Shown: piece by piece, positions 1-581 of the stretch
Layout: each line of letters begins with the position of its first letter
Position numbering within the stretch: the stretch's first letter is position 1
IMG/VR virus record: IMGVR_UViG_3300038696_000188
Span: 1-61,651 of that record
Reading direction: 5' to 3' (one strand)
DNA: 61,651 nucleotides
DNA from: a virus
The notes under the pieces: generated by a model
Databases searched by the model: none
Seen by the model: the letters and a program-made list of their open reading frames with translations, nothing else
What the model was told of the DNA's origin: nothing
Translations under genes and position numbers: made by a program

Positions 1-17
1 TTCTCGACCCAGCGACC

Positions 18-164
18 TCAGCACTTGAGATTGGCAGGGAAGCCTCTCGAGTGCTGACGGAGGTGGGACGGCGTAACGCCTGACCACCCGAAAACTAGCA
101 CCGTCCATGCTAGTTGGGATATCGGTGAGGGCAGGCTTTTATACCTTTCGTGCCTGCCCTCACC
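18..164 (+). ncRNA. Candidate structured RNA made of four stem-loops
   Basis: Four hairpins follow one another with little unpaired sequence between them. Stem 1 pairs 18-30 with 45-57 (13 bp, one G-T). Stem 2 pairs 62-66 with 84-88 and, inside it, 70-73 with 77-80. Stem 3 pairs 93-100 with 108-115 (8 bp, perfect). Stem 4 pairs 124-136 with 152-164 (13 bp, perfect) and could act as a terminator. The loop of stem 3 (CCGTCC, 101-106) is complementary to 66-71 (GGACGG), so a pseudoknot is possible. There is no T-loop consensus, so this is not a tRNA. The strand is inferred from the neighbouring genes. Its 5' limit may lie outside the window, and no known family was recognised. Confidence 0.45.
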
Positions 165-183
165 ACTCCCCCGACACACCGAT

Positions 184-213
184 TTGACAAATGTCACATA
201 TCCAATATAGACT
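184..213 (+). promoter_or_regulatory. Sigma-A-like promoter of the 261 gene
   Basis: TTGACA at 184-189 and TAGACT at 208-213, spacing 18. It follows the stem 4 hairpin directly, so transcription of the left-arm genes can restart here. Confidence 0.75.
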
Positions 214-260: not shown

Positions 261-581
261 ATGGCTATCACCGTTACCACCACCAGCACCACCACCACCA
301 ACGCTATCGAGTTGGACACCGAGGCTCGCACCCTGGTGAACGAGTTGCGGACACTCCGCGACCAGTCCACCGCCATCGAGAAGCAGAAGTCGGCAATCCG
401 CGACCAGCTTCTCGAGACCCTGGGCGACGCCGACGTCGGACTCGTGGACGGCGTTGTGCGACTCCGCCAGCGTGACGAGGTTCGCCGTAGCGTGAGCTAC
501 GCTGAGCTTCTGGCGCTGTTCCCCGAGGCGTATGAGGCGGTCATCAGGGAGAACACCTGTAAGAAGCTCGACATCAAGTAG
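261..581 (+). CDS. Small coiled-coil protein resembling the C-terminal part of YqaJ/Cas4-type phage nucleases
   Basis: 106 aa, ATG preceded by an AGGAGG ribosome binding site at 249-254. Residues 20-60 look like a short coiled coil (alternating L/R/E/K with Q-K-S-A-I-R-D-Q). The second half has the pattern GVVRLRQRD..R..VSY.ELL..FPEAYEAVI, ending in KKLDIK. This resembles the accessory tail that follows YqaJ-type exonuclease domains, but no catalytic domain is present. The Thr-rich N-terminus is low complexity. It is the first gene of the left arm with its own promoter. The function is unknown and the YqaJ resemblance is an impression from pattern only. Confidence 0.8.
   Translation: MAITVTTTSTTTTNAIELDTEARTLVNELRTLRDQSTAIEKQKSAIRDQLLETLGDADVGLVDGVVRLRQRDEVRRSVSYAELLALFPEAYEAVIRENTCKKLDIK

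What the first reader, a model, noticed from the sequence alone, without database searches (positions are those of the whole stretch)
18..164. Possible new structured RNA with a pseudoknot
Four hairpins (three with perfect or near-perfect stems of 8 to 13 bp) fill 147 nt, and a 6-nt loop (101-106) is exactly complementary to a purine-rich segment at 66-71. This density of pairing is far above chance for a short intergenic stretch. The last stem can act as a terminator, so the whole could be a discrete transcript just before the early genes.
Basis: partly seen in the sequence, partly recalled or inferred. Interest (0 to 1): 0.7.

Follow-up and report, generated by a model that had tools for sequence, protein, structure and literature searches.

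The report
Phage mRNA tail hairpin silencing itself
The folded stretch is not a free-standing RNA but the tail end of a phage gene; its last hairpin belongs to a conserved family whose exposed loop is complementary to the gene's own translation start site, so the messenger's tail can probably fold back and control its head.

Summary
The hairpins are real and far stronger than chance (z -7.6), but the region is misread. Window 3-83 is the 3' end of a gene cut by the contig edge: an approx. 600-aa VWA-domain protein, 72% identical over 25 residues in syntenic relatives. Hairpins 1 and 2 therefore lie in coding sequence, and the proposed pseudoknot occurs across homologues only at chance level (5/45 against 4.8 expected). 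Hairpins 3 and 4 (93-164) are the gene's 3' untranslated region; both recur with changed stems in the closest relative.

Following hairpin 4 led to the main result. In dozens of actinophages a hairpin with a rapidly changing stem follows this gene's stop codon, and its loop is the reverse complement of the same gene's own ribosome-binding site, up to 13 nt. Loop and site change together (59 phages: longest match 7.9 nt own, 6.2 others'; permutation 0/20,000), also after thinning to 55% protein identity. The AAA-ATPase gene just upstream shows the same, separately. Most likely the mRNA tail blocks its own translation start, as in S. aureus icaR. In the window the ribosome-binding site lies off the contig, so the pairing is predicted (ACGAAAGG against 144-151), not seen. 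No experiment supports function yet.

The parts
3..83 (+). 3' end of a protein-coding gene cut by the contig's left edge (LDPATSALEIGREASRVLTEVGRRNA*): C-terminus of an approx. 600-aa VWA-domain (CoxE/CobT-like) phage protein; stop TGA 81-83
   Evidence: tblastn 72% identity over 25 aa in L180/L123 (E 1e-6), 58-68% in further relatives, at the C-terminus of a 600-aa ORF followed by homologues of window genes 261 and 614; weak Pfam VWA_CoxE match of the relative, below the gathering score
18..57 (+). hairpin 1 (13-bp stem, inner GGC/GCC hairpin), inside the coding sequence
   Evidence: fold; kept in L217 with G-U pairs and one mismatch; not seen in more distant homologues
62..88 (+). hairpin 2, spans the stop codon; contains 66-71 GGACGG, the proposed pseudoknot partner
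   Evidence: fold; pseudoknot at chance level among homologues
93..115 (+). hairpin 3 of the 3' UTR: 8-bp stem, 7-nt loop CCGTCCA (101-107); possible counterpart of the CCTTCCA-loop inner hairpin of relatives
   Evidence: L217: AAGCCAGA-CTGTCCA-TCTGGCTT; relatives' inner hairpins with loop CCTTCCA
124..164 (+). hairpin 4 of the 3' UTR: 13-bp perfect stem, 15-nt loop 137-151; the conserved self-antisense hairpin
   Evidence: z -8.2 alone; homologous hairpin in L217; family analysis
144..151 (+). antisense segment CCTTTCGT in the loop of hairpin 4; complementary to ACGAAAGG
   Evidence: only occurrence of CCTTTCGT on the + strand; ACGAAAGG occurs 8 times on the + strand, 7 of them 6-8 nt before an ATG; in L217 the homologous loop segment TCCTTTCGTT matches the VWA gene's own RBS AACGAAAGGA, 10 nt
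184..213 (+). promoter of the next transcription unit (TTGACA-18-TAGACT)
   Evidence: repeated promoter family D1/D4
261..581 (+). next gene; its homologue follows the VWA gene in relatives too

Best explanation
Window 84-164 is the 3' UTR of a phage gene for a VWA-domain protein. Its hairpin 4 presents, in its loop, a short antisense copy of the ribosome-binding site (RBS) of the same gene, about 1.8 kb upstream in the same mRNA. Shown: the coding end, the hairpins, and the co-variation of loop and own RBS across the family. Inferred: after transcription the loop pairs with the RBS, in cis (closing the mRNA end to end) or on sister mRNAs, hides the Shine-Dalgarno sequence and so limits translation of the VWA protein, perhaps also opening the duplex to RNase III. 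The AAA-ATPase gene just upstream carries its own separate version. For the window itself the pairing is a prediction: the RBS of the cut gene should contain ACGAAAGG.
For: Coding end. Hairpins 3 and 4 homologous in L217 with compensated stems. Longest exact match of the 80 nt after the VWA stop to the own RBS: 7.95 nt against 6.16 nt to other phages' VWA RBSs, permutation 0/20,000 (59 phages); one per 16 RBS groups P <= 0.001; thinned to <55% VWA identity (about 13 phages) median P 0, max 0.0055. Controls: shuffled own RBS 5.15 (max 5.66), reversed 5.78, RBS of the next gene 5.70. The VWA RBS is the best or near-best match among about 100 start regions of the same phage (rank 1 in 8 of 21, median fractional rank 0.03); L280 shows that the loop follows the VWA RBS and not the genome-wide box. 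The antisense segment is 75% unpaired in the fold (47% overall) and the matched RBS letters end a median 7 nt before the start codon. Specificity: AAA 3' against AAA RBS P 0/20,000, VWA against VWA P 0/20,000, crosswise P 0.6 and 0.07. Precedent: S. aureus icaR 3'-UTR/SD pairing, with gel shift and RNase III data (PMC3868564).
Against: The window does not hold the gene's start, so its own pairing cannot be checked. A subset of phages lacks the match (L238, L261, L262, L265-L268, L284, the Microbacterium phages L412-L414). Loops are pyrimidine-rich, so any Shine-Dalgarno sequence matches to some degree; the permutation tests handle this, but start codons were assigned by rule. The conserved inner-hairpin loop CCTTCCA and the following GTGTCC of many relatives are not fully explained by the own-RBS match. 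A loop match of 8-12 nt over 1.8 kb must compete with ribosomes. No transcript, binding or expression data exist.
Confidence: 0.66

Rival explanations
1. A trans-acting small RNA: hairpin 4 is released from the 3' UTR and its C/U-rich loop pairs with the shared RBS box (ACGAAAGG) of many early phage genes, shutting them down together, as 6C/B11 sRNA does in mycobacteria.
For: In the window 7 of 8 ACGAAAGG sites sit 6-8 nt before an ATG and the only antisense is the loop; element loops match the box AACGACGAAAGGACAA better than shuffles in 63% (control 2%); loops match own-phage start regions better than other phages' loops, P 6e-5 over 12 groups; antisense of frequent RBS 8-mers falls in the element in 9 of 20 phages against about 0.4 expected from its frequency elsewhere.
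Against: Where box and VWA RBS differ (L280) the loop follows the VWA RBS; the AAA gene's 3' end matches the AAA RBS only. The box match may follow from the VWA RBS being of the box type.
Confidence: 0.17
2. Only a transcription terminator or mRNA-end stabiliser; the loop letters are incidental.
For: Position between a stop codon and the next promoter; strong GC-rich stem; in many relatives a second terminator-like hairpin follows.
Against: No U-tract after 164; the loop sequence is conserved while the stem changes and co-varies with a site 1.8 kb away.
Confidence: 0.1
3. A discrete pseudoknotted RNA of 147 nt.
For: Exact 6-nt complementarity 66-71/101-106; extreme folding energy.
Against: First half is coding; pseudoknot at chance among homologues; no homologue of the whole 147 nt.
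Confidence: 0.03
4. A DNA-level inverted-repeat site (protein binding or origin).
For: Perfect inverted repeats upstream of an early promoter.
Against: Stem letters change freely while loop letters are kept, and always on the same strand after the same stop codon.
Confidence: 0.03

Closest known systems
Staphylococcus aureus icaR mRNA 5'-UTR/3'-UTR pairing (PMC3868564)
   Same: A short anti-Shine-Dalgarno motif in the 3' UTR (UCCCCUG) is complementary to the SD of the same mRNA; pairing blocks the initiation complex and makes an RNase III substrate.
   Different: Here it is in phages, presented in a hairpin loop directly after the stop codon, co-varies over dozens of genomes, and is present separately in two neighbouring genes. 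Pairing is not demonstrated.
6C / B11 sRNA of mycobacteria (PMC10470900, citing Mai et al. 2019)
   Same: Hairpins with C-rich loops that pair with G-rich sequence in 5' UTRs.
   Different: 6C/B11 acts on other genes' mRNAs in trans; here the best match is the carrier gene's own RBS. No Rfam hit in window or relatives.
Start-Associated Sequences (SAS) of Cluster K mycobacteriophages and Cluster EF Microbacterium phages (PMC3203893, PMC7302621)
   Same: A repeated, over-conserved RBS box before many phage genes (here AACGACGAAAGGAC in many relatives, CAACGAAAGGA in the window).
   Different: Different sequence and phages; the 17-bp extended repeats (ESAS) were not looked for here. The SAS paper leaves open whether a phage RNA or protein binds the box.
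lambda int/sib retroregulation (from general knowledge, not tested)
   Same: A downstream hairpin controls the upstream gene's mRNA.
   Different: sib works through RNase III cutting and 3' decay, not through complementarity to the RBS.

Membership tests
icaR-type 5'-3' UTR pairing | 3' UTR motif complementary to the SD of the same mRNA | tested here: met
   Family level: own 7.95 nt against 6.16 nt, P 0/20,000. For the window itself the SD is off the contig, so untestable there.
icaR-type 5'-3' UTR pairing | Compensatory change of both sides | tested here: met
   Loop and RBS co-vary between phages, also after thinning by protein identity
icaR-type 5'-3' UTR pairing | Pairing blocks initiation and feeds RNase III | not testable with these tools
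   Needs toeprint, cleavage and reporter assays
6C / B11 sRNA | Match to the Rfam family | tested here: not met
   No Rfam hit at gathering score except one tRNA; none in 20 relatives
6C / B11 sRNA | Trans-acting on several targets | tested here: inconclusive
   Loop matches several RBSs, but the own RBS best
Intrinsic (Rho-independent) terminator | GC-rich hairpin followed by a U-tract | tested here: not met
   165-172 ACTCCCCC; hairpin 4 is not among the terminator-like sites
   5 of 45 against 4.8 +- 2.0 by codon shuffling
SAS (Cluster K) | Repeated conserved box at the RBS of many genes | tested here: met
   Similar kind of box: ACGAAAGG, 7 of 8 + strand sites at RBS position; AACGACGAAAGG in 19 of 37 relatives, 0 reversed controls
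SAS (Cluster K) | The published 13-bp consensus GGGATAGGAGCCC | tested here: not met
   The boxes here are of a different sequence, so this works like an SAS but is not a member

The most novel reading that the evidence does not exclude
A phage-wide form of gene control in which each mRNA of an AAA-ATPase/VWA gene pair carries, just after its stop codon, an antisense copy of its own ribosome-binding site, kept in register by co-evolution; related anti-box hairpins (such as the anti-SAS loop of Adephagia) would then be a general way for actinophages to control genes with boxed RBSs.
Probability: 0.3. Interest if true: 0.85.

Novelty: new variant of a known kind. Interest (0 to 1): 0.72.

Why it matters
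Pairing of an mRNA's 3' UTR with its own Shine-Dalgarno sequence rests on very few bacterial cases; the icaR authors call theirs a 'singular example'. A family with dozens of natural compensatory variants would show that it is selected for, let the pairing be read from sequence alone, and give phage models to test it. It also bears on an open question in the SAS paper: whether the repeated start boxes of actinophages are targets of a phage RNA.

Tried and rejected
Rfam on the window at gathering and at permissive E-value, and on 20 relatives: nothing relevant. DNA search with 1-260, 10-180 and a single-sequence covariance model: no whole-region homologue. Pattern GTGGGACGGCGTNACGCC and a longer variant in viral contigs: hits looked like coding sequence (translation VWDGVTP, read by eye) or unrelated. 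Pseudoknot: chance. Hairpin 3 loop against RBSs: no excess. Loop matches to the phage's own start regions measured by mean duplex energy: mixed; exact-match tests were clearer. The first view (a box-antisense sRNA) was replaced by the own-RBS view. Cluster K test: the only anti-SAS found in Adephagia sits in a hairpin loop and is kept in Biglebops, LastHope and Validus, but it has diverged in Amgine, DarthP and Syra333, is absent in Pixie, MacnCheese, SirPhilip, Oscar and TM4, and AnnaSerena has none: suggestive only. MFE z-scores of the 3' UTRs alone are modest (median -1.6), so folding energy is not the main evidence for the family.

Full report
1. Observation. Folded as RNA, 18-164 has -77.5 kcal/mol against -48.3 for shuffles (z -7.58). 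The complementarity 66-71/101-106 is exact. The 61.6-kb window is an IMG/VR record whose right end runs into an incomplete tRNA-like sequence, so it is very probably a fragment; base 18 is only 17 bases from the left edge.

2. The first half is coding. Frame 3 of the first 83 bases reads LDPATSALEIGREASRVLTEVGRRNA*. tblastn of this peptide finds, in about ten related phage contigs, the C-terminus of an approx. 600-aa protein at 58-72% identity, just before homologues of window genes 614, 261 and 1389. The protein has a weak VWA_CoxE match and the motif DISGSM; its relative in phage DSL-LC01 is annotated 'cobalamin biosynthesis protein' and follows an AAA-ATPase gene. Hairpins 1 and 2 therefore lie in the codons and across the stop.

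3. The pseudoknot. The partner GGACGG is the codons Gly-Arg. In L217, the closest syntenic relative, pairing is possible with two G-U pairs. In 45 homologues a complete 6-pair match occurs 5 times; codon shuffling gives 4.8 +- 2.0. It is not supported.

4. Hairpins 3 and 4 are a conserved 3' UTR. In L217 the stop codon is followed by AAGCCAGA-CTGTCCA-TCTGGCTT and GGGTGGGGAGAGG-TTTCCTCCTTTCGTT-CCTCTCCTCACCC, then a promoter-like stretch and the homologue of gene 261. Five of the eight pairs of hairpin 3 are changed on both sides while six of seven loop letters are kept; the loop of hairpin 4 keeps CCTTTCGT. About 55 distinct 3' UTRs of this gene were collected: nearly all begin with a hairpin whose stem differs from phage to phage and whose loop is C/U-rich (CCTTCC, CCTTCCGTC, GTCCTTT and so on). 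Rfam has no such family.

5. What the loop matches. In the window, ACGAAAGG occurs eight times on the + strand, seven of them 6-8 nt before an ATG; its complement occurs once, in the loop of hairpin 4. Across phages, loops fit the RBS box of their own genome better than those of others. The sharper result is that the loop is complementary to the RBS of the very gene it follows. In 59 phages the longest exact match to the own VWA RBS averages 7.95 nt, against 6.16 nt to other phages' VWA RBSs (0 of 20,000 permutations reach this), 5.15 to the shuffled own RBS, 5.78 to its reverse and 5.70 to the RBS of the next gene. Examples: L269 TGACGGAAGGATA (13 nt), L233 TGACGGAAGGAT (12), L224 GAAAAGGACGA (11), L270 GACGAAAGGAC (11), L217 AACGAAAGGA (10), L255 TAAAGGACAA (10), DSL-LC01 AAAGGACAA (9). 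Thinning to one phage per 55% VWA identity leaves about 13 phages and a median P of 0 (maximum 0.0055). Within a genome the VWA RBS is the best or nearly the best of about 100 start regions (median fractional rank 0.03). In L280 most boxed genes use GACGAAAGG, but the VWA gene uses TTGACGGAAGG, and the loop follows the latter. The matched segment lies mostly in the unpaired loop, and the matched RBS letters end about 7 nt before the start codon.

6. The neighbour gene. Among 1,254 ORFs of 21 phages, 19 have a match of 9 nt or more between the 80 nt after their stop and their own RBS; eight are VWA genes and five are the AAA-ATPase gene upstream (told by length and position). For 53 AAA genes the own match is 6.74 against 5.80 nt (0 of 20,000); AAA 3' end against VWA RBS gives P 0.6, and VWA 3' end against AAA RBS gives P 0.07. 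Each gene's tail matches its own head only. In the AAA gene the antisense piece often sits directly after the stop codon rather than in a hairpin loop.

7. Mechanism (inferred). The 3' loop pairs with the Shine-Dalgarno sequence of its own mRNA and lowers translation, in cis or between copies of the same mRNA. The model is icaR of S. aureus, where this was shown by gel shift, compensatory mutation and RNase III cleavage (PMC3868564). Why an AAA/VWA pair should be controlled in this way is unknown.

8. Limits. The window's own RBS is not in the contig. Some lineages (L238, L261, L262, L265-L268, L284; Microbacterium phages, whose hairpins have a different conserved loop around GUCCCGCAU) lack the match. 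Start codons come from a simple rule. Most genomes are metagenomic fragments. The Cluster K parallel holds only in part of that cluster.

9. Verdict. The tail hairpin belongs to a family of self-antisense 3' UTR elements in actinophages for which I found no description (literature searches): a new, apparently widespread variant of a mechanism known from few bacterial mRNAs.

Noticed in passing
L213, L215, L221, L222, L225, L234, L284 and others (53 loci), upstream of the VWA gene: The AAA-ATPase gene before the VWA gene also has a 3' end antisense to its own RBS only.
   Followed up: partly
L437:28683-28695 (Mycobacterium phage Adephagia, gp92-gp93 gap): The only reverse complement of the 13-bp SAS start box found there sits in the apical loop of a long hairpin; kept in Biglebops, LastHope and Validus, lost or diverged in other Cluster K phages.
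   Followed up: partly
window 184-213, 762-790, 1099-1127, 1731-1760, 2073-2101, 2412-2441, 2619-2647, 2963-2991: A family of near-identical promoters (GATTTGACA...TARACT), often one before each small early gene.
   Followed up: no
37 related viral contigs, e.g. G096, G094, G118: Repeated RBS box AACGACGAAAGG(AC), up to 9 copies per contig and mostly on one strand, resembling in kind the SAS of Cluster K phages.
   Followed up: partly
L412, L413, L414 (Microbacterium phages A3Wally, Pumpernickel, Zooman): A hairpin with a conserved loop around GUCCCGCAU or GCCCCGCAU follows the homologous gene (annotated AAA-ATPase), but without a match to its own RBS.
   Followed up: no
window 18-57: A 13-bp near-perfect hairpin lies within coding sequence (z about -5 for 3-83); partly kept in L217 with G-U pairs. 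Purpose unknown.
   Followed up: partly
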